From: Acidimicrobiales bacterium
GTDB taxonomy: Bacteria; Actinomycetota; Acidimicrobiia; Acidimicrobiales; JACCXE01
Assembly (NCBI GenBank): GCA_035546775.1
Contig: DASZWD010000060.1
Coordinates: 1-64,000 of the forward strand
Direction: 5' to 3'
Length of the DNA stretch: 64,000 nucleotides
The notes beneath the pieces are model-generated. The model was given only the letters and a program-made list of their open reading frames with translations. It had not been told where the DNA came from and did not search any database. Below, one piece after another: positions 39,779 to 55,311 of this stretch (position 1 is the first letter of the stretch; each line of letters opens with the position of its first letter). A program made the translations under genes and the position numbers.

Positions 39779-39781
39779 ACG

Positions 39782-39787
39782 TACCAT
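39782..39787 (+). promoter_or_regulatory. -10 hexamer TACCAT of the integrase gene
   Basis: TACCAT ends 6 nt before ATG 39794 and lies just inside the element, so integrase expression would be driven from within the attP arm. Confidence 0.35.
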
Positions 39788-39793
39788 GGGCCA

Positions 39794-41263: not shown

Positions 41264-41466
41264 CCGCGAAGACGATGTTGTCACCGCAGGGGCGTTGGCG
41301 TTTGACAAGTTAAAGCTTTATACGTCGAACCCATTGACGCCCCGTTAATCCTCGTGTTCGATGCCTCCAACGGCATCGCTTGGCGACCGTTGTACGCCCG
41401 GCCCAAGGTCGGTGTGACCCCGTATGCAATCCCCATTCCTGCTGACGCGCGCAAGGAAACGCGAAT
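41264..41466. other. AT-richer gap with possible promoter
   Basis: The 203 bp region after the integrase contains TTGGCG (41295-41300) and TATACG (41319-41324) with an 18-bp spacer, a plausible sigma-70-type promoter. 7-bp complementary arms (41289-41295 and 41337-41343) flank it. A 69-codon forward ORF here has no coding character. Confidence 0.3.
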
Positions 41467-41664
41467 TTGGGCAACCCAACTAAAGACGAAATCATTGGCG
41501 ACGACGGCGACCTTTCCAAGCGCGAAGTCGCGCGCTTGTGCCGCATCGCGATTAGCACCGTAGACGCGCTGATCGCGAACGGCGCCCTCGACGCGTATCG
41601 CGCCGGGCGCGTGTGGCGAGTGCGCCGTGAGAGCCTCGATGCGTTGCGGGCGGGCACGAAATGA
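41467..41664 (+). CDS. excisionase-like HTH protein
   Basis: The 65-residue protein has the MerR/Xis-type winged-helix pattern: LSKREVARLCRIAISTVDAL (helix-turn-helix), then the wing AYRAGRVWRVRRESLDALRAG. Next to a serine integrase this is a natural candidate for the recombination directionality factor, but MerR-type HTH proteins also serve as regulators. The TTG start is weak and the true start could differ. It overlaps the next small ORF by 4 bp (ATGA). Confidence 0.65.
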   Translation: MGNPTKDEIIGDDGDLSKREVARLCRIAISTVDALIANGALDAYRAGRVWRVRRESLDALRAGTK

Positions 41665-41804
41665 CCGCCGAGGAACGCAGGCGCGCCGTCATCGAATCCC
41701 GCCGCCGCCAAGGACTCCCTACCCCGCCGACTGACCGGCGCGCGCTCGTAGTTCTGGAACGCGCGTTGTCGTCGTCGCGACGAACGCAGGACGAGGTGAC
41801 TTAG
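41661..41804 (+). CDS. small basic protein, 47 residues
   Basis: The 47-codon ORF starts with ATG overlapping the previous stop and is rich in Arg (TAEERRRAVIESRRRQGLPT). It lies in a chain of overlapping genes, the main support for being coding. No family is recognised. Confidence 0.5.
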   Translation: MTAEERRRAVIESRRRQGLPTPPTDRRALVVLERALSSSRRTQDEVT

Positions 41805-41980
41805 TGGCGCGCGCGATCGAGGCCATTTCGGCGTTGCACCGGGAGTACGGCGGCGACGAGCAAGCCCTCGGCGCGTTGGCGCGCGGGTTGGTGCACGACC
41901 TCACGGGGCGTATCGCCGATGCCCTCGACGACGCGCTGCTCGACCTCGACGTGCTCGCACAACCTGAGGTCATTGCGTGA
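41804..41980 (+). CDS. small acidic helical protein, 58 residues
   Basis: The 58-codon ORF starts with a GTG overlapping the previous stop by one base and ends with a GTGA overlap into the primase gene. The sequence ARAIEAISALHREYGGDEQA and the following IADALDDALLDLDVL suggest two helices. Family unknown; it may be a replication accessory. Confidence 0.55.
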   Translation: MARAIEAISALHREYGGDEQALGALARGLVHDLTGRIADALDDALLDLDVLAQPEVIA

Positions 41981-42825
41981 CGGCCGACCGGGTTTTTGCC
42001 GACGAGGCGATCTTCCTTGCGTCGCTCGGTTGGTCGGTGTTCCCCTTGTGCTACCGCGGCAAGGCGCCGTTGACGGCGCACGGACACCGCGATGGCACCA
42101 CCGACCTCGCACTTGTGGCGCGGTGGGCGCGGAAGTATCCCCGCGCCAACATCGGTGCGCGCGTTGTCGACCATCTCGTGGTGCTGGACGTCGACCCGCG
42201 TAACGGCGGCGATGAATCGCTCGCCGCGCTCGGCACATTGCCGTCGACGTTGACGTCGGTCACCGGCGCGGGCGGGCGTCACTTGTTCTTTCGTCGCCCG
42301 CTCGGCGAGTTGATGAACGGCGCGCACAAGCTCGGGCCGGGCGTCGACGTGAAAGTCGGTGGGCGTGGCTACGTCGTGCTGCCGCCGTCGGTGCATCCGA
42401 ACGGGCAGCGCTACGAATGGATGCGCCCGCTCGCCGAAGTTGCGGCGTTGCCCGCGCATGTTGTCGAGCTGTTGCGGCCACCCGTCATTGAGGCGCGGCC
42501 GATGCGTCACCACGACGCATCGGCCGCGCCGCGGCCGGGCGACGTGTTCAACGCTACGACGTCGTGGTCGGACGTTTTGGAGCCGCACGGCTGGCGCTTT
42601 GTTGGCCAGCGCGGCGACCTTGGCTATTGGTGCCGACCGGGCAAGCGCGCCGGAGTTTCGGCGACGACCAACGCCCTTGGCACGGACCGGCTGCACGTGT
42701 TCACGTCGTCGGCGCCGCCGTTGCTGGCGGACACGAGCTACGACCGCTTCGGCGCCTTCGCTGCGTTGCACTACGGCGGCGACCTCACAGCGGCGGCGCG
42801 TGCGTTGCGGGCGGTGGTCACATGA
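41977..42825 (+). CDS. bifunctional primase-polymerase (prim-pol)
   Basis: The 282-residue protein has the N-terminal prim-pol domain (about 10-175): ASLGWSVFPLCYRGKAPLTA, VVLDVDPRNGGDES with the metal-binding DxD, TGAGGRHLFFRRP (catalytic His) and VDVKVGGRGYVVLPPSVH. The C-terminal about 90 residues include YDRFGAFAALHYGGDLTAAA, a fold often found linked to such primases. It would synthesise primers or DNA for replicating the element. It overlaps the helicase-like gene by 4 bp. Confidence 0.88.
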   Translation: MTADRVFADEAIFLASLGWSVFPLCYRGKAPLTAHGHRDGTTDLALVARWARKYPRANIGARVVDHLVVLDVDPRNGGDESLAALGTLPSTLTSVTGAGGRHLFFRRPLGELMNGAHKLGPGVDVKVGGRGYVVLPPSVHPNGQRYEWMRPLAEVAALPAHVVELLRPPVIEARPMRHHDASAAPRPGDVFNATTSWSDVLEPHGWRFVGQRGDLGYWCRPGKRAGVSATTNALGTDRLHVFTSSAPPLLADTSYDRFGAFAALHYGGDLTAAARALRAVVT

Positions 42826-44138
42826 CCCACGTCGACGTACACGACACCATCGACGCGCTTGCGGCGAGCATCGACCTTGGCGAAGCGGCCGCGGGCGGCT
42901 GGCCGACGCTCGGCGATGCGGCGCTGCACGGCATCTTTGGCGACATTGTGCGCACGTTGGAGCCGCACACCGAGGCCGACCGGGCCGCGCTGCTTGTTGA
43001 CGCGCTCGTCGAGTTCGGGAACGCCGTGGGCGCGGGACCGCACGCGGTCGCCGATGGCGCGAAACACCCGGCCCGGCTGTACGCGGTGACCGTCGGCGCC
43101 ACTTCGCGCGGCCGCAAAGGCACCGCCCACCGGCAAATCTCGCGCCTGTTCGCCGAGGCCGATCAGGTGTGGAGCAAGACGCGCGTGATGGGGGGCCTCT
43201 CCACGGGCGAGGGTCTCATCGCCGCCGTGCGCGACCCGATGAGTGAGGACGACAAGAGCGCGCCCACCGACAAGCGGTTGCTTGCCGTCGAGCCCGAGTT
43301 CGCACGAACGTTGACAGCGGCGGCGCGCGACGGCAACACGGTGTCGGCCGTGCTCCGCGACGCGTTCGACACGGGCGACATCGGCGTGATGACGAAGAAA
43401 GACCCGATGCACGCCGCTGGCGCGCACATCTCAGTCCTGGCCCACATCACCGTCGAGGAACTGCGCCGCAAGCTGAGCGACACCGAGGTTGCCAACGGCT
43501 TTGCCAACCGGTTCTTGGTCATCCTCGCGAGGCGGTCCAAGTTGTTGCCCGAGGGCGGCGCGTTGCCGCCCGCTGAGTTTGATCGCTTGGTTCGCTTAGT
43601 TCGCCGGGCGTTGGGGGAGGCGCGCAAGATCGGCACGCTGACGCGGGACGACGACGCCAAGGCGTTGTGGGCTTCGATCTATACCGACCTTGCCGAGCAG
43701 GTCGACGACGGTCTCGTCGGTGCAATCACGGCAAGAGCCGAAGCGTTGTTGTTGCGTCTGTCAGTGATTTACGCCATTGCTGACGGCACCAACCAGATCA
43801 CCACGACGCACGTGCGTGCTGCTCACGCGGTGTGGAGCTACGCCGAAGCATCGGCCCGTTTCATTTGGGGCGACGTCACGGGCGACCCGATCGCCGACAC
43901 TCTCATGACGGCCGTCACGAAGGCTGGCCCCGCCGGGCTTACCGGCAAAGAACAAAGCGCGTTGTTCAGTGGTCACAAGGACGCCAAGACTCTCGACCGC
44001 ACCCGCTCGCGCCTCATCACCGAGGGCAAGGTCATCGCGGTTTCGTCACCAACCCGCGGCCGACCGATCGACGTCATCTTCGCTCCCGCATACGCGGAAC
44101 AAGCGAACAAAGCGAAGCAAGGCGAGTGGCGCCAGTGA
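42822..44138 (+). CDS. DUF3987-like helicase/ATPase of the replication module
   Basis: The 438-residue protein follows the primase with an ATGA overlap. A nucleotide-binding-type loop GATSRGRKGTAHRQI (about residue 92) precedes MGGLSTGEGLIAAVRDP, then the SVLAHITVEELRRKLSDTEV segment and a C-terminal helical domain with a possible winged helix (GLTGKEQSALFSGHKDAKTL). This resembles the DUF3987-type proteins that pair with prim-pol in actinobacterial plasmids and islands. The Walker A is atypical (GxxxxGRKG). It is likely a helicase loader or helicase. Confidence 0.7.
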   Translation: MTHVDVHDTIDALAASIDLGEAAAGGWPTLGDAALHGIFGDIVRTLEPHTEADRAALLVDALVEFGNAVGAGPHAVADGAKHPARLYAVTVGATSRGRKGTAHRQISRLFAEADQVWSKTRVMGGLSTGEGLIAAVRDPMSEDDKSAPTDKRLLAVEPEFARTLTAAARDGNTVSAVLRDAFDTGDIGVMTKKDPMHAAGAHISVLAHITVEELRRKLSDTEVANGFANRFLVILARRSKLLPEGGALPPAEFDRLVRLVRRALGEARKIGTLTRDDDAKALWASIYTDLAEQVDDGLVGAITARAEALLLRLSVIYAIADGTNQITTTHVRAAHAVWSYAEASARFIWGDVTGDPIADTLMTAVTKAGPAGLTGKEQSALFSGHKDAKTLDRTRSRLITEGKVIAVSSPTRGRPIDVIFAPAYAEQANKAKQGEWRQ

Positions 44139-44229
44139 TCTACCCCGGCGAACAAAGCGAATCATGCGAAGTAACGCGCGGCCGCACCCCCAAGGGCTTC
44201 GCAATCCCTAGGGCCGCTGGCGCGCTCTC

Positions 44230-44258
44230 AACCCTGGCCTCGTTAGGCCTCCTGGGTT
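44230..44258 (+). terminator. hairpin upstream of the Cys-rich gene
   Basis: AACCC/GGGTT and GGCCT/AGGCC arms around a CGTT loop form an imperfect stem between the replication genes and the next cistron. It could end the replication operon or act as an RNA control element. Confidence 0.35.
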
Positions 44259-44306
44259 CGCGCTCACGTTCGTACAAGCCCGCCGATGCCCCAGGAGGCC
44301 ATTGAG

Positions 44307-45026
44307 ATGCCCACCTGCGCCGGTTGCGGCGACCCGATCCCACTCTCGCGAGGCACGACGCCACGCAAGTGGTGTAGTGACGCCTGCCGGGTCGCCAAGG
44401 CCCGCAAGACGCCGCCCAAGCCGTCGCCCCCGACGGTGTCACCCCCGCCCGACGTCGCCAGCTACGAGCCGGGCGAGCGTGGCCTCGTTGACGCCGTGCG
44501 GGCGTGGCTTAGCTCGTTGCCGCCGTCGCTCGACGCCGTTGACGCCGCCGAGGCCGAACTCGTGGTCGACCTGGCGGAAATGGTCGAGGCCGGGAGCGTG
44601 CCCGCGGCCCGCGAGCTGCGGATCGCGCTCGCCGACGTGCGCAGCGCGGCCGACCCTGACGCCCGCGACCGGGTGAGCGAGGCGGCGCTCGTGCAGGCGG
44701 TGACGGCGATGGTCTCCACCGCCCCGGCGATGGGACGGGCGATGACCGACGCCGAACTCGCCGACCACATTGCGGCCGAGGCCGACTTGCCCGACGGCTG
44801 GCGCTCGACGCGGGCCGACGGGCCGTTGATTGAGTGGCTGGGGCGCCGTAGCCGCGAACTCATGGCGACCGCCGACGAGGCCGCGTTGCGTCGACTCGAC
44901 GCGTGGATAACCCGGCATGCCATTGGTCTCGCGTACGTGCGCGAGCAGGGCCGCTGGCACCACTGGAACGTGCGCGACCGCCGCGACGCGTTGCTCGACC
45001 CGAACGGCGACGATGACGCCGCTTAG
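44307..45026 (+). CDS. unknown protein with N-terminal zinc ribbon
   Basis: The 239-residue protein begins PTCAGCGDPIPLSRG, then RKWCSDACRVAKARK. Together these form a CxxC...CxxxC zinc-binding ribbon such as those in small DNA- or RNA-binding proteins. A Pro-rich linker (about 45-60) leads to an Ala-rich helical domain without recognised motifs. ATG 44307 is preferred to 44286 because CAGGAGG (44292-44298) lies between them. The end overlaps the next gene by 14 bp. Confidence 0.6.
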   Translation: MPTCAGCGDPIPLSRGTTPRKWCSDACRVAKARKTPPKPSPPTVSPPPDVASYEPGERGLVDAVRAWLSSLPPSLDAVDAAEAELVVDLAEMVEAGSVPAARELRIALADVRSAADPDARDRVSEAALVQAVTAMVSTAPAMGRAMTDAELADHIAAEADLPDGWRSTRADGPLIEWLGRRSRELMATADEAALRRLDAWITRHAIGLAYVREQGRWHHWNVRDRRDALLDPNGDDDAA

Positions 45027-45420
45027 CGAGTTGTACGCGCTGAGGCTCGATGACGGCGCACGTCGGCACTTGCGTCGCGCGCTTGATGGTCACGCCGCAT
45101 GGTGCCGATCACAGGGCGTCGCGATGCCGTCGGCACTCGCTGCTCTCGCGTTTGTGGTCAATGGCGGCCACGAGCGGCCAACGCTTGGCGCTTCGGGCGC
45201 CAACGCCGATGATTGGCTCGTGCCGATGGTGTTCACGTACGACGAGGTCGCAAGTCTGCTGCGCACGAGCGACCGCACCGTTCGGCGCCTCGTCCGGGCC
45301 GGCGACCTGCCGGTCATCAAGGTCGGCGGCCAACCGCGGGTCGCCCGCGCAGACCTTGATGACTACGTCGCCCGCCTACGCGCGCGTCGCGAGAGTGAGT
45401 TGAGCAATGGACCGGAATAA
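45013..45420 (+). CDS. HTH protein, excisionase/MerR-type C-terminal domain
   Basis: The 135-residue protein has a C-terminal Xis/MerR-like HTH (about 75-125): FTYDEVASLLRTSDRTVRRL, GDLPVIKVGGQPRVARADLD. The N-terminal 70 residues are helical and unassigned. It is the second excisionase-type HTH on the element, so one may direct integrase excision and the other regulate transcription. It overlaps both neighbours. Confidence 0.7.
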   Translation: MTPLSELYALRLDDGARRHLRRALDGHAAWCRSQGVAMPSALAALAFVVNGGHERPTLGASGANADDWLVPMVFTYDEVASLLRTSDRTVRRLVRAGDLPVIKVGGQPRVARADLDDYVARLRARRESELSNGPE

Positions 45421-45901
45421 GCGGCAGTCCGACGACTCGGCTTCGCCGGTCTCGATCGTTCGCAAGCGGGAGTCGGAAGTTCCCGGTGGCTTTGAGCCGC
45501 GCCAATTGGCTATCGAAGCCCACGACCGCCTCGTCGCGGAGGCGTTCGGAGCCACGGCCGCGTACGCCAGCAGCCACGTGGGCAACGGGTTTGCACTCGG
45601 CTGGGCCTTCCCCGGCGAGTGCTGCACCGCCTGCGTAGCGCGTGACTTGCGCGACGGCGAGGCGGTGTTAGCTGACCCGGCGGCGTTGGATGGTGCGATC
45701 GACGTGTTGTTGGGTCTCGATGAGGGCCGCGGTCGTGGTGTCGTTCTGGCGCAACAACTGATGATCGTTCGCGAGGCGTGGCGAGACCGCGGGCAGCGCC
45801 AAGCGCGCGACCTGGTGCGTGCGTTGGAATATCTCGACCGGTGCGGGCAGCTTGATTTCGTCCGCAGACACTTGAGCGAGCACGGCGCGGTGGGCGCATG
45901 A
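45407..45901 (+). CDS. unknown protein of the element
   Basis: The 164-residue protein has ECCTACVARDLRDGEAVLAD with three Cys near the middle and helices around it. No family is recognised. It overlaps the HTH gene by 14 bp and the next gene by 4 bp (ATGA), so it belongs to this operon. Confidence 0.55.
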   Translation: MDRNKRQSDDSASPVSIVRKRESEVPGGFEPRQLAIEAHDRLVAEAFGATAAYASSHVGNGFALGWAFPGECCTACVARDLRDGEAVLADPAALDGAIDVLLGLDEGRGRGVVLAQQLMIVREAWRDRGQRQARDLVRALEYLDRCGQLDFVRRHLSEHGAVGA

Positions 45902-46206
45902 ACGCGGACTCGCGCACCACCGGGCTCCGGCGGCCGTTGCCGGGCCCGCACAACCGCGAACAGTTGGCGGCCCTCGCAGATATAGACCGTCGGCGCCTGG
46001 AGGTCGCGAACGCAATGGTCGAGCACATGCTCGGGAAACCGCCGTCGCAGCCCAGCAAACGCGTTTCACCTGTGGCGCGCTCGCACATTGCACGGTTGCG
46101 CGCAGACATGGCGGTCCTTCGCGTCGCGAACTCAGGCGAGCAGTTCGCGGCGGCCTCCCAAATAGTTACGGCGCGGCTCGACCGCATACGCGAGGCCCTT
46201 GGATAA
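45898..46206 (+). CDS. small unknown helical protein
   Basis: The 102-residue protein has two predicted helices (LAALADIDRRRLEVANAMVE; ARSHIARLRADMAVLRV). No domain is recognised. Its ATG overlaps the preceding stop (ATGA). The 187 bp that follow, to the HNH pseudogene, contain no gene I can support. Confidence 0.5.
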   Translation: MNADSRTTGLRRPLPGPHNREQLAALADIDRRRLEVANAMVEHMLGKPPSQPSKRVSPVARSHIARLRADMAVLRVANSGEQFAAASQIVTARLDRIREALG

Positions 46207-46393
46207 GCGGTAGTGCTCGCCGCCGAACTCGACCTTGCCGTCGCGTCGGAAAGGTCGCCCGTTGGTCAAAGCGGCGGGCCGAGTAGCTCGCCGATGCGGC
46301 ACTCCAATCCGCCGTCGTGATGTTCCTCGCGGGTGACATCCTCCTAAGCGCCCCTCGGTTAGGCGTCACACCGTCGGCGTACCGTTCCGTGAC

Positions 46394-46867
46394 GTGGCAA
46401 GTCGCCTGCGCATCGAACTCGTGCCAAGCCGCTTCGGCGCGGCAGCCTTGCCAACCGCCTTCCCCGTGCGCGTTGGAAGGCCTCCGCAAGCAGGTGCGAG
46501 CCGAGCATGGCGGCGCGTGCGACTACTGCGGCGCCACCACCACGCGCTTGTTTGCCATGAGGAGTGGGACTACGACGAGGCGCGCCGCGTCGCCACGGTG
46601 ACGGGCTTCGCGGTGGCGTGCACCGAATGCAACCTCGTCTTGCACTTTGGGCGTGCCGAAGTAAACGGGCTCGGCTTCAAGGCGAAGGCCCACCGCGCAC
46701 GCATCAACGGCGTCAATGCACCCGAGGTCGAGCGCGAGGTCGCCGAGGCGTTGTCGACGTGGAACGTGCGCTCAGGGCTTAGGTGGACCGTCGCGATCGC
46801 GCCTGCGGTCGTCGAGCGGTTCCCGTTCCTCGAGGGCGCCCTCGACGTGTCCTTGTGGACGCAGTAG
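46394..46867 (+). pseudogene. frameshifted HNH endonuclease
   Basis: Pieces of an HNH endonuclease lie in three frames. RLRIELVPS and the C-terminal part (HEEWDYDEARRVATVTGF, CTECNLVLHFGRAEVNG) are in the frame of GTG 46394. A middle piece SLANRLPRARWK is in a second frame. LRKQVRAEHGGACDYCGAT is in a third, switching near 46476 and 46554-46558. Three single-base losses restore one reading frame and the usual pattern of two CxxC pairs with HExW and HxGRA. TACCGT at 46380-46385 lies 8 nt before the GTG. Assembly error is the alternative to true decay. Confidence 0.7.
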
Positions 46868-46923
46868 GTGCCTAGGGCCCATCCGCTACACCTTTGTGAC
46901 GGCCGCGCCGTTCACGCCACGAG

Positions 46924-46961
46924 CGCCCGGCCAACCCCCGCCGAAAGGCGAGGTTCGGGCG
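46924..46961. terminator. hairpin with GAAA tetraloop between convergent genes
   Basis: Arms CGCCCG/CGGGCG, AACC/GGTT and CGCC/GGCG close on a GAAA loop (46943-46946). The stem ends one base before the tyrosine recombinase stop at 46962 and follows the HNH pseudogene on the other side. Confidence 0.65.
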
Positions 46962-47795
46962 TCATGTGGTGGTGTATCTGCGTCCCGTAATCGCCTGTTC
47001 CAAGTGCGCCCAAGTGGGCTTGACGTACTTGCCGGTTGTCGTCAGGTGGGCGTGACCGAGGATCGATTGCACGTCTCGTATGTGGGCTCCTGCGTTGAGC
47101 ATGTCGGTGGCTGCGGTCGCTCGCAGGTCGTGCGCGCGGAGGGGTAACCCGGCTCGTTGCGCGAGTTTGCTTACGCGATGCGAGACGGCTCGTGGTGTGG
47201 CTCGTCCGTCTCGGCGGCGGGCTGTGACGACGGGGCCAGAGGCGGGCTTCTCGGTGATGTTCAGCAGCTTTTGGGATTCAGTCGAGATCGGTACGTAGCG
47301 TTCGTGGCTTGCTTTGCCGCGAACGGCTGCGACGAGGGACTCGGCATCGATGTCGCGCCAATCGAGTCTCGCCACTTCGACGCAGCGCAACCCTTCTTGA
47401 ACCATGAGTGACACGATTCGCCTGTCGTCGAGGGTTTCGCATTGCTCGTACAGCGCCTTGATTTGTGCTCGTGTGCCGGGCCGCGGGACGCGCCTGGGGC
47501 GGCGTGGGCCTCGTATTGATGCGCAGGGATTCATGGCGACCAAATGGTGACGGCTGAGCCAGTCGCACCATCCGCGTATGTGGCTGAGATATCCGCACTT
47601 GGTCATGGCCGACCACGATGGGTTGCTGAGCCATGCGCGGATCGCGTGCTCGGTGACGTCGTTTGTGTCTGACTCGGCGATGTACTCGGCGAGGTGTCGC
47701 AGCGTCGCTGCCGTTGCGGTGGCGGTTGAGCCTTGGATCTCGTCGAGCGCGACCCGCTCGTTGATGTACTCGGTGATAAGTCGTTCGAGGTCCAT
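46962..47795 (-). CDS. tyrosine recombinase (complete catalytic set)
   Basis: The 277-residue XerC/D-like recombinase has a core-binding domain (about 1-95) and a catalytic domain with QEGLRCVEVARLDW (Arg I), RGKASHERYVPI (Lys), AHDLRATAATDML (His-x-x-Arg), LGHAHLTTTGKYV (His and Tyr nucleophile). All catalytic residues are present. The ATG at 47795 follows GAGGAGG, an unusually strong ribosome site here, located inside the 3' part of the upstream recombinase ORF. Hence it is co-transcribed with and translated from within that gene. Confidence 0.9.
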   Translation of the reverse strand: MDLERLITEYINERVALDEIQGSTATATAATLRHLAEYIAESDTNDVTEHAIRAWLSNPSWSAMTKCGYLSHIRGWCDWLSRHHLVAMNPCASIRGPRRPRRVPRPGTRAQIKALYEQCETLDDRRIVSLMVQEGLRCVEVARLDWRDIDAESLVAAVRGKASHERYVPISTESQKLLNITEKPASGPVVTARRRDGRATPRAVSHRVSKLAQRAGLPLRAHDLRATAATDMLNAGAHIRDVQSILGHAHLTTTGKYVKPTWAHLEQAITGRRYTTT

Positions 47796-49921
47796 GGCGC
47801 TTTTCCTCCTCGGTAGGCAACCGCGATCCGGTACGGCGTCCACACGGCAGCCTCGCCGGTCGCGGCTCTTGCTGCGTTCAGATGGCGAGAGATCCACGCG
47901 AATGGTCGATCGTCATCGTCGTGCAGTCGCACGATCTGTTCAGCTATGCGCGCCGGTACGTGGCGCGGGTTCCCGCGCCGATGTGCGTTGAGGTATCCCC
48001 GGAGCGTGTGAATATCGGAGGTGGTGAAGACGACGTTGCCGGTCGGTGTTCGGGAGCCAACAACGTTTGCTTGTCTGCGTACTGTTGCCAGCCAGCCGAT
48101 CGAGATTCCGAGTGCGAGCGCCGCCTCGCGCAACGTGAAGTACTGGCTGTCCGGCGAGCTTGGGATCGGCCAGGCCCGTGGGGCGAACTCTCGTGATCCC
48201 GCCTCTTGCCCGACCTGCAGGTGACGAAAGGTTGTCGACAACGCCTTGTGTCCGGCCGCGTCGCGGATCGCATGGACGGGGGCGCCGCTCTCGACGAAGT
48301 GGGCGATTGCCGTCGCTTGCAGTGTCTTCGCGCTTCCCGACAGTTCGGCCCGCTTGAAGGCTGAGAGCACCGTGCCTGTAATCCGTTGGCGGGACATCCG
48401 TTGACCGGATGCGCCGACAAACAGCGGGCCATTCGTCCGATCACCAGCCGCGAGATGTCTCCGCACCGCCAAGGCGACCTCGACGCTGAGTGGGATCAAT
48501 CCCGTTTCGGGATGCTTGAGCACCAGGTGATCCACATCTACGTCGCCTATGCCGAGGCGATGCATCTGCGTCGCCGTGAGCGCGTGGCACAACATCAGCA
48601 GCAGGATGAGCGTGACCGTTGGGCCACGGTTCGCTTTCAACAGCACCGCGCAATCGTCGTCGGACAGTCGTCGCGGGGCGTTCGCGACGAGACGGGGCGT
48701 CTTGAGCGCTTTTGTCGGGTCAGCGACGATCAGCCCGGCCGCCAGCAGCTCGCGGATGAAGCAACGTACCGAGATGGTGCGGACGCGAACCGTGTTGCGA
48801 GCGCACTCTCCCTGCGTCAGCCATGCGCGGACGGAGTCATAGGTCAACAGATCGGCGCTGGCTGCTAACTGTCGAAGCATGAGCGCCTGACTGGCGTACG
48901 TCACGGGAAGCCAATCTGACCGTCGTCGTTCCAGATACCACTCGACAAGTTCGGAGAGCGACGCAAGCTCGCCCGTGACTGGACCAGCGCACGCGCTTGG
49001 AGACAGCGCCCAGCGGAAGGCCCAGCGCGCCGGCGACGCGTTTTCCGGCCGGGGACGATCGCCCGAACCCGGCTGGCGGTTGACGGTGCGGACCGGATCA
49101 GTCACGAACCGGGGCAGATAGTCGTCGATAGCGCTCGGATCGTCGTGGCCCAGAAACGCGCGTAGCTGTTCCACGCTCGCACCGGATTCGGCCAAACGCG
49201 CAACAGCTTCCGCCCGTAGCGCCTTTGGCGGAGCGGACACGCCTGCCCGGTCGAGTGCCCTTCGAGCCTCCAACCAGATCTTCGTTTCATTCAGCCCTTG
49301 TGGCCAGCGTCTCTCGGACGCCACGACGAAGCCATCAGGCCGTGCGAACGGGCCGCGCGCACGCGCGACGTGGTCGTATGCGTCGCGCAGATCCAGCACT
49401 CGCTCGCGACCGGCCTTCCCACGGACAATGAACTTTCGACGCCGAAGATCCACACATGCCCACGTCAGCCGCGCAACCTCGACTCGGCGCAAGCCGCAAT
49501 ACCCCATGAGAGCCACAACCAACGCCTCGCGTGGCGAAGCCGTCGAAAGCACAAGCTCGACATCGATTCGAGCGTTGTCCAACCGGGACCTGTGTCGCGC
49601 GCTCGACGTCGGGATATCGAGGAGTCGCTCATCGGTCGGGATGACTCCCGTATCGAATAGCCACGTCACGAACCCACGAAACGAAGCTCGTCTATTTGCC
49701 TGGGTGTATGGCGTCAGGTCTGCCATCAGTTGACGCCAGTCAGCAGGGATATCGCCCAGCTCGTCGATCCGTGTCACTCCTGCGACGGTGAACAACCTGA
49801 AAAGCCGAGACCGCTCCGTCCTAGCGGTCTTCGGTTGCCAAATGTGGAGCGCCGCCCGGTCAGCGGCGTAATCGGTCGCGAGGTCCCTCAGGCGCAACGA
49901 AGGCGAGTATTGCGGCGTCAT
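47603..49921 (-). CDS. tandem tyrosine-recombinase-like protein with C-terminal HTH domains
   Basis: The 772-residue fusion has a first recombinase domain (about 1-275) keeping YCGLRRVEVARLTW (Arg145), RGKAGRERVL (Lys169), LRAEAVARL (Arg236; the His three before it is Lys), LGHDDPSAIDDY (His259, Tyr268). The second (about 320-575) has lost both Arg (CHALTATQMHRL; LQATAIAHF) and the Tyr (TTFRHL), so it is catalytically dead. An Xis-like HTH (about 595-645, FTLREAALALGISIGWLATV) and a recombinase-type helical domain (about 655-705) follow. The last about 60 codons overlap the next gene out of frame and are Ser/Thr/Arg-rich. AGGAGG precedes ATG 49921. Confidence 0.8.
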   Translation of the reverse strand: MTPQYSPSLRLRDLATDYAADRAALHIWQPKTARTERSRLFRLFTVAGVTRIDELGDIPADWRQLMADLTPYTQANRRASFRGFVTWLFDTGVIPTDERLLDIPTSSARHRSRLDNARIDVELVLSTASPREALVVALMGYCGLRRVEVARLTWACVDLRRRKFIVRGKAGRERVLDLRDAYDHVARARGPFARPDGFVVASERRWPQGLNETKIWLEARRALDRAGVSAPPKALRAEAVARLAESGASVEQLRAFLGHDDPSAIDDYLPRFVTDPVRTVNRQPGSGDRPRPENASPARWAFRWALSPSACAGPVTGELASLSELVEWYLERRRSDWLPVTYASQALMLRQLAASADLLTYDSVRAWLTQGECARNTVRVRTISVRCFIRELLAAGLIVADPTKALKTPRLVANAPRRLSDDDCAVLLKANRGPTVTLILLLMLCHALTATQMHRLGIGDVDVDHLVLKHPETGLIPLSVEVALAVRRHLAAGDRTNGPLFVGASGQRMSRQRITGTVLSAFKRAELSGSAKTLQATAIAHFVESGAPVHAIRDAAGHKALSTTFRHLQVGQEAGSREFAPRAWPIPSSPDSQYFTLREAALALGISIGWLATVRRQANVVGSRTPTGNVVFTTSDIHTLRGYLNAHRRGNPRHVPARIAEQIVRLHDDDDRPFAWISRHLNAARAATGEAAVWTPYRIAVAYRGGKAPWTSNDLSPSTSTSGSRSTRSKAQPPPQRQRRCDTSPSTSPSQTQTTSPSTRSAHGSATHRGRP

Positions 49922-49987
49922 GGCGTGACCTCCTGCGCTCGTCGACGGTACGCCGAACGAACAGAAACGCAACCGGCAAGCGGGCCG

Positions 49988-49993
49988 TAGTAT
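49988..49993 (+). promoter_or_regulatory. -10 hexamer TAGTAT of the small membrane gene
   Basis: TAGTAT ends 8 nt before GTG 50002, the leaderless pattern. It lies in the 80 bp gap divergent from the tandem recombinase gene. Confidence 0.4.
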
Positions 49994-50001
49994 CCGCGGC
50001 C

Positions 50002-50289
50002 GTGTACGACGCGCGGCGAGCAAAGACTCGTGATTTGTCAGTCGGTGTCGCCCTCGGCGCGGTTGCCGCAGCTCTGGTTACGTGGGGCCCTCACGCGACA
50101 CCATTGGTAATCGCCGCGCTCGCGCTCGTCGCGATCGTCATCGACTTAAGCCGGCGACGACGCGAACCAGATGTAGGCGTACGAGCCCAGCAAAAGCCGA
50201 GCGTGCACAGAATCCGCGAGCCTCGCTGCCATCACCAGCCGTCGGCGCCAGCGATGCGCGCTCGCAGTACGGCCTCGACACGCCACTAG
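50002..50289 (+). CDS. small membrane protein
   Basis: The 95-residue protein has a hydrophobic N-terminal half (VGVALGAVAAALVTWG; PLVIAALALVAIVIDL), i.e. two membrane segments, and a basic C-terminus. Function unknown. A TAGTAT hexamer supports the GTG start. The next membrane-protein gene begins at the base after its stop. Confidence 0.5.
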   Translation: MYDARRAKTRDLSVGVALGAVAAALVTWGPHATPLVIAALALVAIVIDLSRRRREPDVGVRAQQKPSVHRIREPRCHHQPSAPAMRARSTASTRH

Positions 50290-50730
50290 ATGGCAGGGCG
50301 ACACAGGGGACCACAGCGTCGATCGCATCACATCCTCGCCATCGCGGCGATCGGGCTCGGCGCCGTGGTGTGCTCACTCATCGCGATCCAAACGGTGACC
50401 GAAACACGCCATCGTCCGCGAATTCCATTGCAGTGGGGATTCGACGGGACCCCCGGCTGGCTAGTCCCCCGCGTCGCCGGTATTGCTTTGCCATGCGGGG
50501 TGTTCGTCGTCGGGTCCTTAATCGGCGGCTACCTCGTGTGGAAACATGAACACGAACGTCTCGCAGTCGGAATCACCCTTGTTGTCGACGCCTCGGCTGC
50601 GCTTACCAACTGGTACCAAGCTCACCAGCCGGGAACGATGTCTTCGGTGGTGCTGACGACGGCGATGGTTGCATTGGGAGTCGTGTGGCTTGTCATTGAT
50701 CGCTCAATGCATCATCGGGCGCCGACGTGA
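50290..50730 (+). CDS. membrane protein, DUF1648-like
   Basis: The 146-residue protein has four hydrophobic segments and the phrase RIPLQWGFDGTPGWLVPRV, matching the P-x-x-W-x-x-x-G-x-P pattern of DUF1648 proteins (SdpI-type relatives). Such domains occur in immunity and membrane-signalling proteins. Function here is unknown. It is paired with the preceding membrane gene without a gap. Confidence 0.6.
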   Translation: MAGRHRGPQRRSHHILAIAAIGLGAVVCSLIAIQTVTETRHRPRIPLQWGFDGTPGWLVPRVAGIALPCGVFVVGSLIGGYLVWKHEHERLAVGITLVVDASAALTNWYQAHQPGTMSSVVLTTAMVALGVVWLVIDRSMHHRAPT

Positions 50731-50738
50731 ACGGTTCG

Positions 50739-51041
50739 TCACGGCACACGTTCGGCAGTAGGGCGCGCGCTCGTCGCCCCAGCGCGAGGTTGATCCGAAA
50801 GCGCGGCCACTCGCGCGGTCAGGTCGTCGAGTTCGTTGCGCATCCCGTCGATCTTCTCGGCGAGGTCCGCATCGGGCCGGTCGCGGCTCGCTGGACCAGC
50901 GTCACCCACCCCCGGAGCGGAGGACACTTGTCCTACTCGCCCGCCGCCGCGTACCTTCGTCGTTGGTCCCGCCGACTTTGGTCCAGCGCATGGAAGAGAG
51001 TCGGCGGGACCGCTACGCGTTCGCCAGTGGTTCTGGTGCAT
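50739..51041 (-). CDS. possible coiled-coil protein
   Basis: The 100-codon minus-strand ORF has a C-terminal coiled-coil heptad stretch (LAEKIDGMRNELDDLTARVA) after a low-complexity start. No ribosome site or TAnnnT promoter is well placed, and forward ORFs in the same place look non-coding. The heptad pattern is the only positive support. If it is not real, 50731-51096 is an unassigned 366 bp gap. Confidence 0.35.
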   Translation of the reverse strand: MHQNHWRTRSGPADSLPCAGPKSAGPTTKVRGGGRVGQVSSAPGVGDAGPASRDRPDADLAEKIDGMRNELDDLTARVAALSDQPRAGATSARPTAERVP

Positions 51042-51096
51042 ACGCGCCCGCGCGTGAGTAGCGTTCTGTCACGGACTAGTGGGGGGAGCAATTCTC

Positions 51097-51609
51097 ATGC
51101 GCCGTCGATTGATCGTGGCTGGGTTCGTGATCGTGTTGTCGTCCTTGGGTGCCGCGGCCTTCGCTCAGACGGCCACCACGACCACCAGCACGACGACGAG
51201 CACCACCACCTCGTCGTCGACGACCAGCACGACGGTCGCGACAACGACAACGACGGGCACGCCGCCGACGACAGTCACAACTACGGCGCCCGCGACGACA
51301 ACAACAGCCGCGCCGGACGATCAGAACTGCTCCGACTTCCCGAGCCAGGCGGCAGCGCAGGCGCATCTCCGCGCCGACCCGTCAGACCCTGACCGCCTCG
51401 ATCAAGACAACGACGGCATCGCGTGCGAGTCCAACCGCGCACCGTTCGACCGCGTGCCTGTCGTGCGATCGTCACGGACCACGCCGACCGGCCAACTGCC
51501 GACTACTGGTGCCGATGCGTGGATTCTGGCCGGTGGGGCGCTCGTGCTGGTCGGTGCCGGGGCACGGATGCGCGGCCGACGCGCCGGCGGCACTCACTGG
51601 AACGCGTGA
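51097..51609 (+). CDS. Excalibur-domain surface protein with LPxTG anchor
   Basis: The 170-residue precursor has a signal peptide (RRRLIVAGFVIVLSSLGAAA, then FAQ), a Thr/Ser-rich stalk (about 25-75), and an Excalibur domain NCSDFPSQAAAQAHLRADPS followed by DQDNDGIACE, the EF-hand-like calcium motif. A sorting signal LPTTG, a membrane helix and an Arg-rich end complete it. It is cell-wall attached by sortase. GGGGGGAGC lies 9-17 nt upstream of ATG 51097. It is an unusual cargo on an integrative element and may alter the host surface or phage adsorption. Confidence 0.85.
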   Translation: MRRRLIVAGFVIVLSSLGAAAFAQTATTTTSTTTSTTTSSSTTSTTVATTTTTGTPPTTVTTTAPATTTTAAPDDQNCSDFPSQAAAQAHLRADPSDPDRLDQDNDGIACESNRAPFDRVPVVRSSRTTPTGQLPTTGADAWILAGGALVLVGAGARMRGRRAGGTHWNA

Positions 51610-51730
51610 GCCACGCGGACCCGAGTAGCGCTCTTCTTCTGCCAAAGAACACCGATGTAAGCTTGGCGTTCGTTGCGTTCGCGGAGGCGCACCACGAGAT
51701 TTGGTAACGGAGTGCTGAGGGGGGCCGTCA

Positions 51731-51952
51731 GTGGCCGACAGCGAACGCGAAGACGGATTCGCGAACATGCGCGAGATGGGCTGGGTCATCGCCCGCACCA
51801 CTAAGAAGGGCTACACGATCTTCCATTGCCCCTGTGGAGATCACTCGATCACCTTTTCGAAGACGCCCTCGAACCCCAACCATTACCGCGAACGGGTCAA
51901 TCACGCCTCAGTGATCTGTTGCCATGGTGACGCCACCGAAGCCACCGATTAG
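51731..51952 (+). CDS. small CPCG-motif protein, HicA-like pattern
   Basis: The 73-residue protein has GWVIARTTKKGYTIFHCPCG, then HSITFSKTPSNPNHYRERV and ICC near the end. Four Cys and a His could bind zinc. The fold pattern (GW..R..KKGY..F.C) recalls HicA mRNA-interferase-like small proteins widespread in actinobacteria, but the catalytic His of HicA is not clearly placed. GAGGGGGG precedes the GTG start. It lies 138 bp upstream of a gene whose homologues I recall as frequent neighbours. Confidence 0.6.
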   Translation: MADSEREDGFANMREMGWVIARTTKKGYTIFHCPCGDHSITFSKTPSNPNHYRERVNHASVICCHGDATEATD

Positions 51953-52090
51953 ATCGGTAATGAATTGCCGCCGAAGGACCCTATTCCGACCCCAGGTGGC
52001 ACTCCCGATGGTAGACATGGCTCTACAACAGGTAATACTTAGTTGCACAGGACAACACACCTTGGGGCAAGCGGAACAGGAAAGGTGGTG

Positions 52091-52468
52091 ATGGGCATGG
52101 CGAAATCCAATGAGTTAGAGCTGCGCGTCATGTTCAAGGTCCAGGCCTCCTGCCCTAACGCCACCCCGGATGAATTTCGTCAGGGTCTCGAAGAGCAGCT
52201 GGGCGACGTCATGGAAGAGTTGCTGCAAGACGAGCGAGTCGTCGACCCGATCATCGGTACTGAGTACTCAACCGGCACGGTCACGTTTGAGTTGATCGTT
52301 GCTGGCAGCGACGAAGCCGAGATTGTCCGTATCACTAGCGGCGCGATCCGCGCCGCCATTCACGGCGCGGGTGGGGCGACGCCTGGCTGGTCGCTTGCCG
52401 ACGGGAACGAAGGCAAGGCGCCGATTTACACCCGTATCGGATTCGAAGCGGACTTCGTCGACGCCTAA
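52091..52468 (+). CDS. conserved unknown protein, partner of the CPCG gene
   Basis: The 125-residue protein is an alternating strand/helix protein with VMFKVQASCPNATPDEFRQG and TSGAIRAAIHGAGGATPGW, the latter a phrase I recall from an uncharacterised actinobacterial family found beside HicA-like genes. There are no catalytic residues I can name. GAAAGGTGG precedes ATG 52091; ATG 52097 is in frame. TAGACA and TAATAC (52012-52038) upstream suggest its own promoter. Confidence 0.6.
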   Translation: MGMAKSNELELRVMFKVQASCPNATPDEFRQGLEEQLGDVMEELLQDERVVDPIIGTEYSTGTVTFELIVAGSDEAEIVRITSGAIRAAIHGAGGATPGWSLADGNEGKAPIYTRIGFEADFVDA

Positions 52469-52632
52469 ACGCAAACTGCCAGCACGACAAGGGTCACCAG
52501 TCGCGCGGCGACCCCCACATTCGCGAACGCGCACTTGCCGAACAAGCAACCGCGGTCAGGATTCTGCGTGCGTGAATTTGACGACCATGTTCAGCCCGTC
52601 TTAGCCAACTTGCTCTCGTTGCGGCGCATGCT

Positions 52633-52971
52633 TTAACCGCGCGCTGCGTGCGCGGTCATACCGACGCCGAGTTCGTACTCGCCCGACAGCTCAAGGAAGG
52701 CGGCGGCGTACGCGGCCTGGAGCACTTCCTCGGGGCTCGGTGGACGAGACCGATAGACCGACACCTCCGACACAAGCGCCAACAGCTCCAGACTCGAACT
52801 ACTCAGTGCCGGATTCCCGATGTTCGCGTGCAGCGTCACGTCCATGACTCGTCTGTCGGCTGTCGGGCGAATCTCGCCGGTCAGCCAAACGGCGTCGCCC
52901 GCCTCAACCATGCGGCGCAACTCGTCCCCGGAACTTCGTGATCCGAGAGCGCCTGTGATGGCCGGGATCAA
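52633..52971 (-). CDS. unknown protein, 112 residues
   Basis: The minus-strand ORF has VEAGDAVWLTGEIRPTADRR, then VMDVTLHANIGNPALSS and a C-terminal helix EEVLQAAYAAAFLELSGEYE. It overlaps the upstream gene by 68 bp and starts with TTG, so its start is uncertain. Family unknown. Confidence 0.45.
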   Translation of the reverse strand: MIPAITGALGSRSSGDELRRMVEAGDAVWLTGEIRPTADRRVMDVTLHANIGNPALSSSSLELLALVSEVSVYRSRPPSPEEVLQAAYAAAFLELSGEYELGVGMTAHAARG

Positions 52972-53581
52972 TGAAGAGTCTCGCTGTTTCGTCTAGTCCC
53001 ATCCGCCGGTACGACAACACCCGTAGTTCGATGTCCCACTCGCTCGGCATTGGCCATGTGCCTGGTTCATCCCACGCGCTCGGCCCGCCCTCGACTTGCA
53101 GTTTTCGCAATCGGCGCTGGTGCTCGGACCGGTCGCGAAGTAGCTCCACTTCATTCGAACTGATGGCGTCCGCCGCCTGTCGACGCCGCGCAGCAAGCAT
53201 GTTGAGATATGTCTCCCAGGGATCGGGAGGAAGCGCAGAAGCGTCGGCGGTCGTCCATGCTGCCTTCGATTCGCCGCTCGGCCTCGGCGCCGGAGGGGCG
53301 TCGGACGATCGACGCGCCACGACGGGCGCCATGGGCTGCGACGGGCCTGGAGGGAGTTCGACGACACTTACAGCGCGCCAAAGCCTGCGAACTCCCAGGA
53401 ACAGCCCGCTAGCAATGCCGGCGTACACGATGACGCACGCGAGGATGAACGTGACAACAAGCTGTCCGCCCATCATCCAGAGCGCCGCCAGAATCCCCCC
53501 GCCGCAAATGAGTGTCACGGGCAGGCAACCGCGCAGTGGCGACTCGTCCTTGTCGACCACGTGATCGACCCTAGGCACCAC
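52904..53581 (-). CDS. membrane protein of unknown function
   Basis: The 225-residue protein has two N-terminal membrane segments (VTLICGGGILAALWMMGGQL; VTFILACVIVYAGIASGLFL), a Pro/Ser-rich linker (about 80-115) and a charged helical domain (RRQAADAISSNEVELLRDRS). The C-terminus contains RRMGLDETARLFIDPGHHRR. Not recognised. GTG start at 53581. The 164 bp downstream of the following gene, back to 52469, has nothing I can support. Confidence 0.5.
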   Translation of the reverse strand: MVPRVDHVVDKDESPLRGCLPVTLICGGGILAALWMMGGQLVVTFILACVIVYAGIASGLFLGVRRLWRAVSVVELPPGPSQPMAPVVARRSSDAPPAPRPSGESKAAWTTADASALPPDPWETYLNMLAARRRQAADAISSNEVELLRDRSEHQRRLRKLQVEGGPSAWDEPGTWPMPSEWDIELRVLSYRRMGLDETARLFIDPGHHRRSRITKFRGRVAPHG

Positions 53582-53765
53582 GATCCGCTAAGACAACTCA
53601 TACACCGCTCTCGTGACACAACACGCCGAGAAACATTGAGGGACAGCGCGAGCTAGCACGAGACAAAAGCGCAGGTCAAGGCGAAGGTTTCGAACGTTCC
53701 CGCTGGTCACGAAACCCGCCGACTCAGAATCCCGCTTACAGGCCGACTCAAATTCACAACGTCAC

Positions 53766-53771
53766 TACCGT
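53766..53771 (+). promoter_or_regulatory. -10 hexamer TACCGT
   Basis: TACCGT ends 6 nt before ATG 53778 and supports the forward gene over the antisense ORF in the same place. Confidence 0.35.
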
Positions 53772-53777
53772 TGGACG

Positions 53778-54125
53778 ATGGCTTCCTGCCCGGAACTCTG
53801 GGAGCAACTCTCCGCCGCAGAGAATCGTCGCGACAGGAGCGGGCATCGCGGCTTTCTCGCCGAGGACGTCGTCGTCCACGTCCAGGGTGGCGCGGAGTTG
53901 GGCGGCGTCGACGCCTACTGCTTGATGATCGACGGGTTCTGCGGGTTGTCGCCCGACTACAGCGCCGACGTTGAGCGCCGCCTCGACGCGCTCGTCGCCG
54001 AACTCGACGAGCTGGTCGCCGACTCTGATCGCCTCGCCCGTCACCTGGGCGTCAAGCGGGCGCCGTCGGGTGCGGCGCCCGCGTGCGCCTCGGCGATAAC
54101 GAACGCCGCGACACCACCGCCGTAA
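53778..54125 (+). CDS. small unknown protein
   Basis: The 115-residue forward ORF has an acidic middle and a helical VERRLDALVAELDELVADSD stretch. The 196 bp upstream of it, back to 53582, contains no other gene candidate. Family unknown. Confidence 0.45.
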   Translation: MASCPELWEQLSAAENRRDRSGHRGFLAEDVVVHVQGGAELGGVDAYCLMIDGFCGLSPDYSADVERRLDALVAELDELVADSDRLARHLGVKRAPSGAAPACASAITNAATPPP

Positions 54126-54128
54126 CGT
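54123..54128 (+). promoter_or_regulatory. -10 hexamer TAACGT
   Basis: TAACGT includes the stop codon of the previous gene and ends 7 nt before ATG 54136. Confidence 0.35.
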
Positions 54129-54135
54129 GGCGCGC

Positions 54136-54483
54136 ATGAAGCGCGTCGTAGCCGCGTGGCGCATCACCCTGGCGACGGTCGCCGTCGGCGCGCTGGCGGC
54201 GTTCGTCATCGACTACCACGCCGACCACGAGCACGACATCAAATGTCGCCGATATGCCAACGCGCTTACCTTGACGCTCGACGCCACGACTCCCGACGAG
54301 GCGGCGTTGCGCAAGCTCACCGACGCCGACCGCAAGGCGGTACTTCGCGACCGCAAGCTGCACGCCGACGCGTTGGCGCAGCTTGAGCCGAGCGACGACG
54401 AGGGCATCGCCGCCGAGAACAAAAATTGGGACACGTTCCGCCGCACCGATCGGGCGCAACTGCTCGCCGCTCGCGGCTGCTGA
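54136..54483 (+). CDS. small membrane-anchored protein
   Basis: The 115-residue protein begins KRVVAAWRITLATVAVGALA with one membrane helix, then an acidic/basic soluble part (TDADRKAVLRDRKLHADALA). ATG 54136 is preferred to the GTG at 54127 because of the TAACGT hexamer. Unknown function. Confidence 0.5.
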   Translation: MKRVVAAWRITLATVAVGALAAFVIDYHADHEHDIKCRRYANALTLTLDATTPDEAALRKLTDADRKAVLRDRKLHADALAQLEPSDDEGIAAENKNWDTFRRTDRAQLLAARGC

Positions 54484-54488
54484 GCCGT

Positions 54489-55274
54489 TTAGAGGAACTT
54501 CGACAGCGGCGCGATGACTTTGTCGCGAAGGTTGCTCGCTATTGCGTTCACGACGGTCGCAACGTGCTTGCCGTTGAGTACGCCGCCGACGAAGTCGACG
54601 TCGGCGTCGATTTCGATCGCAACACGGTCGTAGGTCTTTCCAGCAATCGTGAGTTCGCAGCCCGAGTATCTGCCGACCTCGATCGCGCCGTCGTCATCGA
54701 CGGGCTGAGACTGCATGGCCAACACACCGATGGTCATCGAGTCGAAGAACCGCGAGGCGCCGATCCCAAAACCGGATTGGTGTCCCGTAGCGGTGAACCC
54801 AAGATGATGCTTGTCGTCGTTGTTTAGCTCGCGAAGGTTGGCAAGCCACTCGTTCGCTTCTGGGTCTGCCGTTGGTTGCAGGTTCTCAATGATCGTGCGG
54901 GCGCCTTTCGGAACGCACCCGATGCACGCGTTGAAATCTGCGGGTGTCGGCGGCTGTTTCGTGGCTATCGGAAACTGGCTCGTCTTGCGCGCTTTCTCAT
55001 CGAACGCGGCACCCGCAGTCTCGCCGAGCGCGTACGCGATGTTGTCGAGGGACGCCCGCGCTGCGTGGGCGAACTCGCTAATCGCTGGCTCCAATCCATC
55101 GGGTTGTCCCGGCAACCACACCCGAATGACACGGACGCCCGTCGCGCCATCCTTTTCGTGGCGAACGACCTTGTGCTTTACCCACTCGTCGCACATGGCG
55201 CCAATTTGCTTGGCGCGCTTGTCGGCTTGTGCCAGCTTCTCGGCGAACCCGTAGGCCACGCAGCGAAGGTACAC
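54489..55274 (-). CDS. conserved unknown protein next to attR
   Basis: The 261-residue soluble protein has FAHAARASLDNIAYALGETA, SQFPIATKQPPTPADFN, ARTIIENLQPTAD and LRELNNDDKHHLGFTA. These phrases (ASLDN..Y.L, QFPI, LQP, L..LN..DKH) recur in a widespread uncharacterised family that I recall from many bacteria and mobile elements. No function is established. It is the last gene of the element, reading away from the attR core 30 bp upstream of its GTG. Confidence 0.65.
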   Translation of the reverse strand: MYLRCVAYGFAEKLAQADKRAKQIGAMCDEWVKHKVVRHEKDGATGVRVIRVWLPGQPDGLEPAISEFAHAARASLDNIAYALGETAGAAFDEKARKTSQFPIATKQPPTPADFNACIGCVPKGARTIIENLQPTADPEANEWLANLRELNNDDKHHLGFTATGHQSGFGIGASRFFDSMTIGVLAMQSQPVDDDGAIEVGRYSGCELTIAGKTYDRVAIEIDADVDFVGGVLNGKHVATVVNAIASNLRDKVIAPLSKFL

Positions 55275-55282
55275 GTCATTAT

Positions 55283-55303
55283 GCCAACGTCATCGTGAAT
55301 AGA
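55283..55303 (+). other. left half of attP retained at attR
   Basis: GCCAAC (55283-55288) is followed by exactly 15 nt before the core. On the other side of the element, 15 nt separate the core from GTTGGC. The two arms are therefore symmetric about TCCGACGA in the circular form. Confidence 0.75.
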
Positions 55304-55311
55304 TCCGACGA
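55304..55311 (+). repeat. attR core of the integrative element
   Basis: This is the second copy of TCCGACGA, identical to attL. To its right is the chromosomal tail of yebC, and to its left the element. Confidence 0.88.

What the first reader, a model, noticed from the sequence alone, without database searches (positions are those of the whole stretch)
46962..49921. Three tyrosine-recombinase domains in series, one of them dead, fused to HTH domains
The 772-residue upstream protein contains two recombinase-like units. The first keeps Arg145, Lys169, Arg236, His259 and Tyr268 (with one His replaced by Lys). The second has lost both arginines and the tyrosine. An excisionase-like HTH and a further helical DNA-binding domain follow. 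The next gene is a complete recombinase. Three recombinase domains in tandem recall recombinase-in-trio and Tn554-type systems, but the active/dead/HTH fusion is not an arrangement I know. It could be a self-contained recombination machine within the integrase element.
Basis: partly seen in the sequence, partly recalled or inferred. Interest (0 to 1): 0.72.

Follow-up and report, generated by a model that had tools for sequence, protein, structure and literature searches.

The report
Fused active–dead recombinase with active partner
Inside a mobile DNA element of an actinobacterium, one gene joins a working-looking DNA recombinase to a broken copy of the same kind, and the next gene encodes a second complete recombinase; three-recombinase sets are known, but this fusion was found nowhere else in the collections searched.

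Summary
The core observation holds. On the minus strand, 49921-47603 encodes one 772-aa protein with two tyrosine-recombinase (YR) units, followed by a complete YR gene (47795-46962). Unit 1 keeps R145, K169, R236, H259 and Y268, with Lys in place of His. Unit 2 has lost both arginines (T449, Q535) and the tyrosine (H567), but it matches the Pfam integrase family and is predicted with high confidence to have a YR fold. It has no convincing start of its own, so it is a real fusion as far as the sequence shows. Corrections: the HTH assignments are weak, and the last ~67 residues are an out-of-frame overlap with the next gene. The trio sits inside a ~15.6 kb serine-integrase element inserted in the 3' end of yebC (8-bp direct repeat TCCGACGA). 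No related fusion turned up in ~230 actinobacterial genomes or in the GTDB, IMG/VR, phage and plasmid scans. All three units are nearest to short actinobacterial phage integrases, not to the sampled SE proteins; RIT proteins were not compared. No significant terminal repeats were found. Most likely it is a RIT-like recombination module in which the dead unit plays a DNA-binding role. A decaying relic is the main rival. New variant of a known kind.

The parts
47603..49921 (-). Gene for the 772-aa fused recombinase (P0001), ATG at 49921, stop at 47603-47605
   Evidence: two PF00589 stretches
49929..49934 (-). Shine-Dalgarno AGGAGG, 7 nt before the P0001 ATG
   Evidence: sequence
49052..49921 (-). 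Unit 1 (residues 1-290): YR with R145 K169 K233 R236 H259 Y268
   Evidence: PF00589 E 1.6e-15
48212..48970 (-). Unit 2 (residues 318-570): YR fold with T449, Q535, H567 at the Arg, Arg and Tyr positions; H558 and K469 kept
   Evidence: PF00589 E 1.7e-9; AlphaFold2 pLDDT ~90; Foldseek to Brujita integrase and XerA
47972..48154 (-). Possible MerR/excisionase-like HTH (residues 590-650), weakly supported
   Evidence: NCBIfam TIGR03453 E 0.0025 at 592-661; helix-helix-strand-helix at pLDDT ~57-62
47807..47971 (-). Residues 651-705, two low-confidence helices, no family match
47603..47806 (-). Out-of-frame C-terminal tail (residues 706-772) that overlaps the start of the next gene
   Evidence: codon-phase switch
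46962..47795 (-). Gene P0002: complete 277-aa YR, R137 K161 H222 R225 H248 Y257, short form without an arm-binding domain
   Evidence: PF00589 E 7.8e-31
47805..47810 (-). Shine-Dalgarno AGGAGG, 9 nt before the P0002 ATG, inside P0001
   Evidence: sequence
46945..46966 (.). Left copy of a weak imperfect direct repeat (AAGGCGAGGTTCGGGCGTCATG) at the P0002 stop; candidate site only
   Evidence: p 0.008-0.08 by flank size
49900..49922 (.). Right copy (AAGGCGAGTATTGCGGCGTCATG) at the P0001 start; candidate site only
39746..55311 (.). Host serine-integrase element; attL TCCGACGA at 39746-39753 in the end of yebC, attR TCCGACGA at 55304-55311 followed by a yebC-like tail
39794..41263 (+). Serine integrase of the host element
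   Evidence: PF00239 E 3.7e-28, PF07508

Best explanation
It is a three-unit tyrosine-recombinase operon, carried as an accessory module inside a serine-integrase element. The long protein is a covalent pair: unit 1 is catalytic, unit 2 is a catalytically dead recombinase that most likely keeps DNA-core binding and protomer contacts, and its C-terminal part may add further DNA binding. P0002 is the second catalytic subunit, made from the same mRNA with its own ribosome-binding site. Working model (inferred): unit 1 and unit 2 occupy the two arms of one core site, so only one strand is cut there by P0001; P0002 cuts the other or the partner site. This makes the reaction strand-biased or directional. 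Shown: two catalytic-looking units, one dead, fusion in one frame, close gene overlap. Inferred: that they act together, and that unit 2 binds DNA. Not known: the recombination site and the DNA it moves. The module may be a nested, RIT-like mobile unit of about 3 kb.
For: Catalytic residues kept in unit 1 and P0002 and lost in unit 2. Unit 2 still predicted as a complete YR fold, core-binding part included. Frame kept open through unit 2 against an expectation of 7.9 stops, and codon phase kept to ~residue 705. Both genes have AGGAGG sites at good spacing, the second inside the first gene. Active/dead/active sets exist in SEs and GInts, with overlapping genes and suggested translational coupling in SEs (PMC10214605, PMC5385486). 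RITs are ~3.5 kb trios nested in other mobile elements (PMC3414803).
Against: No homologue of the fusion was found, so conservation of the dead unit cannot be shown. No significant terminal repeat. No detectable similarity to SE proteins. The DNA-binding role of the C-terminal part is weakly supported.
Confidence: 0.45

Rival explanations
1. A decaying relic: an integrase gene duplicated in tandem inside the element, one copy lost its active site, and the fused protein has no function any more or is on its way out.
For: Unit 1 and unit 2 group together on very long branches (lengths 3.4 and 3.0; support 94/83), and each stays on a long branch when the other is left out. No relatives found. Missing terminal repeats.
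Against: No stop or frameshift in 705 codons (0 of 2000 shuffles were stop-free over unit 2 + C-terminal part); codon phase kept across the units; unit 2 core-binding and catalytic folds predicted intact.
Confidence: 0.27
2. P0001 is not a recombinase in practice but a regulator or directionality factor for P0002: both of its units bind core sites and its HTH acts as an excisionase, while P0002 alone recombines.
For: Box II His is Lys in both units; possible excisionase-like HTH; P0002 is a self-sufficient short integrase type, nearest to single phage integrases.
Against: Unit 1 keeps Arg, Lys, Arg, His and Tyr, which a mere binding factor would not need to keep.
Confidence: 0.15
3. The operon serves the host serine-integrase element itself, for example as a resolvase of multimers or an inversion switch, and is not mobile on its own.
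For: It lies well inside the element, which has its own integrase, primase-polymerase and excisionase-like genes; no terminal repeats mark it as a separate unit.
Against: None of the 11 loci with a related primase-polymerase carries it; no repeated core site found in the element.
Confidence: 0.1
4. A sequencing or assembly error joins two neighbouring genes.
For: Only one genome carries it, so there is no second copy to check against.
Against: No ATG and no Shine-Dalgarno site in the linker before unit 2, so no obvious second gene start is lost by the join; phase is continuous across the linker.
Confidence: 0.03

Closest known systems
Recombinase-in-trio (RIT) elements (RitA, RitB, RitC; PMC3414803)
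   Same: Three YR units, same strand, overlapping genes, about 3-3.5 kb, carried within other mobile elements.
   Different: RIT has three separate genes with 4-8 bp overlaps, all with a catalytic motif, and a 28-9 bp inverted repeat; here two units are fused, one is dead, the overlap is 193 nt and no inverted repeat was found. Sequence relation to RitA/B/C was not tested directly.
Strand-biased circularizing integrative elements (SE: IntA, Tfp, IntB, Srap; PMC10214605)
   Same: Two YRs with catalytic motifs, a YR-like protein without them between the two, and a separate putative DNA-binding protein; overlapping genes.
   Different: Four separate proteins of 408, 581, 720 and 135 aa in SE-6945; no alignment better than E 6.6e-4 over 49 residues to any window unit. 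Gammaproteobacterial.
GInt islands (GinABCD; PMC5385486)
   Same: Three integrase-like proteins, one lacking the first catalytic Arg, plus an HLH/HTH protein, one operon.
   Different: Separate genes at the 5' end of an island; not at the edge of an element here. Protein sequences were not compared.
Tn554 and actinobacterial Tn554-like transposons (PMC3414803); the YR pair in L098
   Same: One normal-size YR and one abnormally long one; the pair in L098 comes from the same order.
   Different: In L098 the long protein has one matched catalytic domain; P0001 has two. Different size and order.
Short phage integrases (Brujita type; mycobacteriophage Xeno; actinobacterial phages L031, L032, L055)
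   Same: Nearest sequence and fold relatives of all three units; no arm-binding domain.
   Different: Single genes, never tandem in the loci fetched.

Membership tests
RIT element | three adjacent, separate YR genes ritA-B-C with 4-8 bp overlaps | tested here: not met
   Two genes, three units, 193-nt overlap
RIT element | all three recombinases have a catalytic motif | tested here: not met
   Unit 2 lacks both Arg and the Tyr
RIT element | 28-9 bp inverted repeat flanking the trio | tested here: not met
   Best inverted match of the two flanks not significant, p 0.06-0.23
RIT element | membership in RitA/RitB/RitC protein families | not tested
   No RIT proteins were located in the collections; P0001 hit only 8 plasmid records at E 1e-5
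SE (strand-biased circularizing element) | homologues of IntA, Tfp, IntB, Srap | tested here: not met
   BLASTP to SE-6945 and a second four-gene set on pSEA1: best E 6.6e-4 over 49 residues
SE (strand-biased circularizing element) | operon between 13-19 bp imperfect terminal inverted repeats | tested here: not met
   Operon internal to a serine-integrase element; no significant repeat
GInt | ginABCD operon delimiting one end of an island | tested here: not met
   Gene order and position differ
Tn554-like transposon | TnpA plus one long TnpB with a single YR domain | tested here: not met
   Long protein has two YR domains
Tyrosine recombinase superfamily | PF00589 match and YR fold | tested here: met
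   All three units over the Pfam cut-off; unit 2 fold
Tyrosine recombinase superfamily | catalytic R-K-H/K-R-H-Y set | tested here: met
   Met by unit 1 (with Lys at box II) and P0002; not met by unit 2
Excisionase / MerR-type HTH (residues 590-650) | significant match to an HTH family | tested here: inconclusive
   Only TIGR03453 E 0.0025; none in Pfam or PHROGs

The most novel reading that the evidence does not exclude
A new kind of recombination machine in which an active and a dead tyrosine-recombinase protomer are covalently joined, so that each core site is cut on one strand only, and a second, separate recombinase completes the exchange; a built-in strand bias made by gene fusion, moving as a ~3 kb unit nested in a serine-integrase element.
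Probability: 0.18. Interest if true: 0.68.

Novelty: new variant of a known kind. Interest (0 to 1): 0.42.

Why it matters
Elements with three recombinases (RIT, GInt, SE) are widespread, and in the papers read here the need for three proteins to cut four strands is left open (PMC3414803). A natural protein in which an active and a dead protomer are fixed together in a 1:1 ratio would let that question be tested directly: which protomer sits where, and whether the dead one imposes the strand bias. If it is only a relic, it is one more example of integrase decay and matters little.

Tried and rejected
Terminal inverted repeats of the trio: none above chance. Direct repeat at the two edges: best of 90 intergenic comparisons (z 5.2), but equal scores occur elsewhere in the window, so kept only as a candidate. 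Homology to SE proteins from pSEA1: none beyond generic motifs. HTH similarity to the element's own excisionase-like gene and serine integrase: none. Defence-system families: none. RNA families, tRNAs: none. Programmed frameshift making a triple fusion: P0002 is in the -1 frame and a GGA AAA G lies at the junction, but a strong Shine-Dalgarno site sits at P0002's ATG, so independent initiation is preferred (judgement, not tested). Related elements through the primase-polymerase: 11 loci, none with the trio. Other tandem recombinases among fetched loci: only the Tn554-like pair in L098. Three genome searches at larger n failed on the server, so sampling of the order and phylum is partial (118 and 111 genomes). 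Literature search for fused or duplicated YR domains gave nothing relevant; subscription papers are not held.

Full report
What is there. The minus strand from 49921 to 47603 is one open frame of 772 codons, and 47795 to 46962 is a second gene of 277 codons. Pfam finds two PF00589 stretches in the first and one in the second; in the whole genome these are 3 of the 8 matches of that family. Unit 1 (E 1.6e-15) keeps R145, K169, R236, H259 and Y268; the box II His is K233. Unit 2 (E 1.7e-9) has T449, Q535 and H567 where the two arginines and the tyrosine should be, keeps K469 and H558, and also has Lys (K532) at box II. P0002 has the full set R137, K161, H222, R225, H248, Y257.

Is unit 2 a recombinase fold? 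AlphaFold2 on residues 300-705 with a shallow alignment (8 rows) gives pLDDT about 90 over most of residues 318-550, with the core-binding helices and the catalytic domain. The best solved-structure matches are the Brujita integrase (5vfz, E 3.5e-10) and XerA. The alignment rows are themselves recombinases, which could pull the model towards that fold, but the Pfam match is independent of it. The full-length model is poor (mean pLDDT 56.6) and says nothing on how the units are arranged.

Is it a fusion or two joined genes? The linker (residues ~270-317) has no ATG; its one GTG (residue 273) has no Shine-Dalgarno site. Unit 2 plus the C-terminal part has no stop where codon-position shuffles expect 7.9. 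Codon phase stays in the frame of P0001 until about residue 700, then switches to the frame of P0002. So the last ~67 residues are overlap and not a domain. Both genes begin behind AGGAGG at 7 and 9 nt, the second inside the first, which suggests one mRNA and possibly translational coupling (inference).

The C-terminal part. Residues 592-661 match partition_RepA (TIGR03453) at E 0.0025, which is compatible with a MerR/excisionase-type HTH; Pfam, PHROGs and PDB sequences give nothing. Residues 651-705 show two low-confidence helices. I treat both as possible, not shown.

Surroundings. The trio lies inside a serine-integrase element. yebC (39041-39778) ends in ..NFDISDELFTTVLA; the same 8 bases TCCGACGA occur at 39746 and at 55304, where they are followed by codons reading SDELFAVLA-stop, i.e. 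a yebC-type end. In other genomes of the order yebC ends NFDIPD.. and is followed closely by ruvC in two of four and by bcp in a third. So the element is about 15.56 kb. It carries a serine integrase, a primase-polymerase and helicase-like pair, an excisionase-like HTH gene and an HNH gene, then the trio on the other strand. Eleven loci with a related primase-polymerase from the same order lack the trio.

Relatives. The whole fusion was not found in 118 genomes picked as relatives, 111 genomes drawn from the phylum, the GTDB contig scan, IMG/VR, the phage records or the plasmid records. The pattern-based scans find only close relatives, so absence there is weak evidence; the genome searches should have shown a 30%-identical full-length homologue. 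In a tree of 45 recombinases all three units fall with short integrases of actinobacterial phages (94/91); unit 1 and unit 2 join as sisters (94/83), but both have very long branches and the join may be false. The shared Lys at box II fits a tandem duplication (inference).

How it may work. SEs have IntA (active), Tfp (YR-like, no catalytic motif), IntB (active) and Srap (PMC10214605). GInts have GinC without the first Arg (PMC5385486). RITs have three YRs nested in other elements, and the authors note that three proteins for four strands is hard to understand (PMC3414803). The present operon has the same kinds of parts, two active and one dead. I infer that the dead unit holds one arm of the core site and keeps the 1:1 ratio by fusion, giving a strand-biased or directional reaction with P0002 as the second cutter. 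The site is unknown. Direct comparison with SE proteins gave nothing beyond generic motifs, so it works like these at most by analogy and is not a member.

Ends of the module. No inverted repeat is significant. A 23-nt imperfect direct repeat lies exactly at the P0001 start (49900-49922) and the P0002 stop (46945-46966). It is the best of 90 intergenic comparisons, but its dinucleotide-shuffle p is 0.008 to 0.08 depending on flank size, and equal scores occur elsewhere in the window. It is a candidate for a test, no more.

Verdict. The finding is real in its main point and is a new variant of a known kind: a multi-recombinase module with a covalent active-dead fusion, known here from one genome only. 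Function is inferred.

Noticed in passing
39746-39753 and 55304-55311: Attachment sites of a ~15.56 kb serine-integrase element in the 3' end of yebC; the element supplies its own yebC ending (ELFTTVLA), and the native-looking ending (ELFAVLA) lies at the far end.
   Followed up: yes
52581-52611: 24 of 31 bases match the end of yebC (39708-39738) in the same reading frame; may be a remnant of another insertion or part of an attachment region, or chance.
   Followed up: partly
L098 6000-8955: In another genome of the order, a normal-size tyrosine recombinase overlaps a long (~640-669 aa) one on the same strand, like the actinobacterial Tn554-like transposons of PMC3414803.
   Followed up: partly
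L061 (G001 contig C453), position 5119-5126: The contig of the only same-genus genome ends 7 bases before ruvC, as if assembly broke at the same insertion region.
   Followed up: no
L068 21344-27775 (plasmid pSEA1): A second four-gene set of the SE type (467, 773, 731, 165 aa) on pSEA1; the 165-aa gene is annotated 'bacterioferritin comigratory protein', which looks like a misnomer.
   Followed up: partly
L097 30430-34265 (plasmid pHG1): Two adjacent tyrosine recombinases (405 and 510 aa) followed by two small hypothetical genes, another multi-recombinase operon.
   Followed up: no
51079-51609: Small secreted-looking protein with a Thr-rich stretch and an Excalibur calcium-binding domain inside the element.
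   Followed up: no
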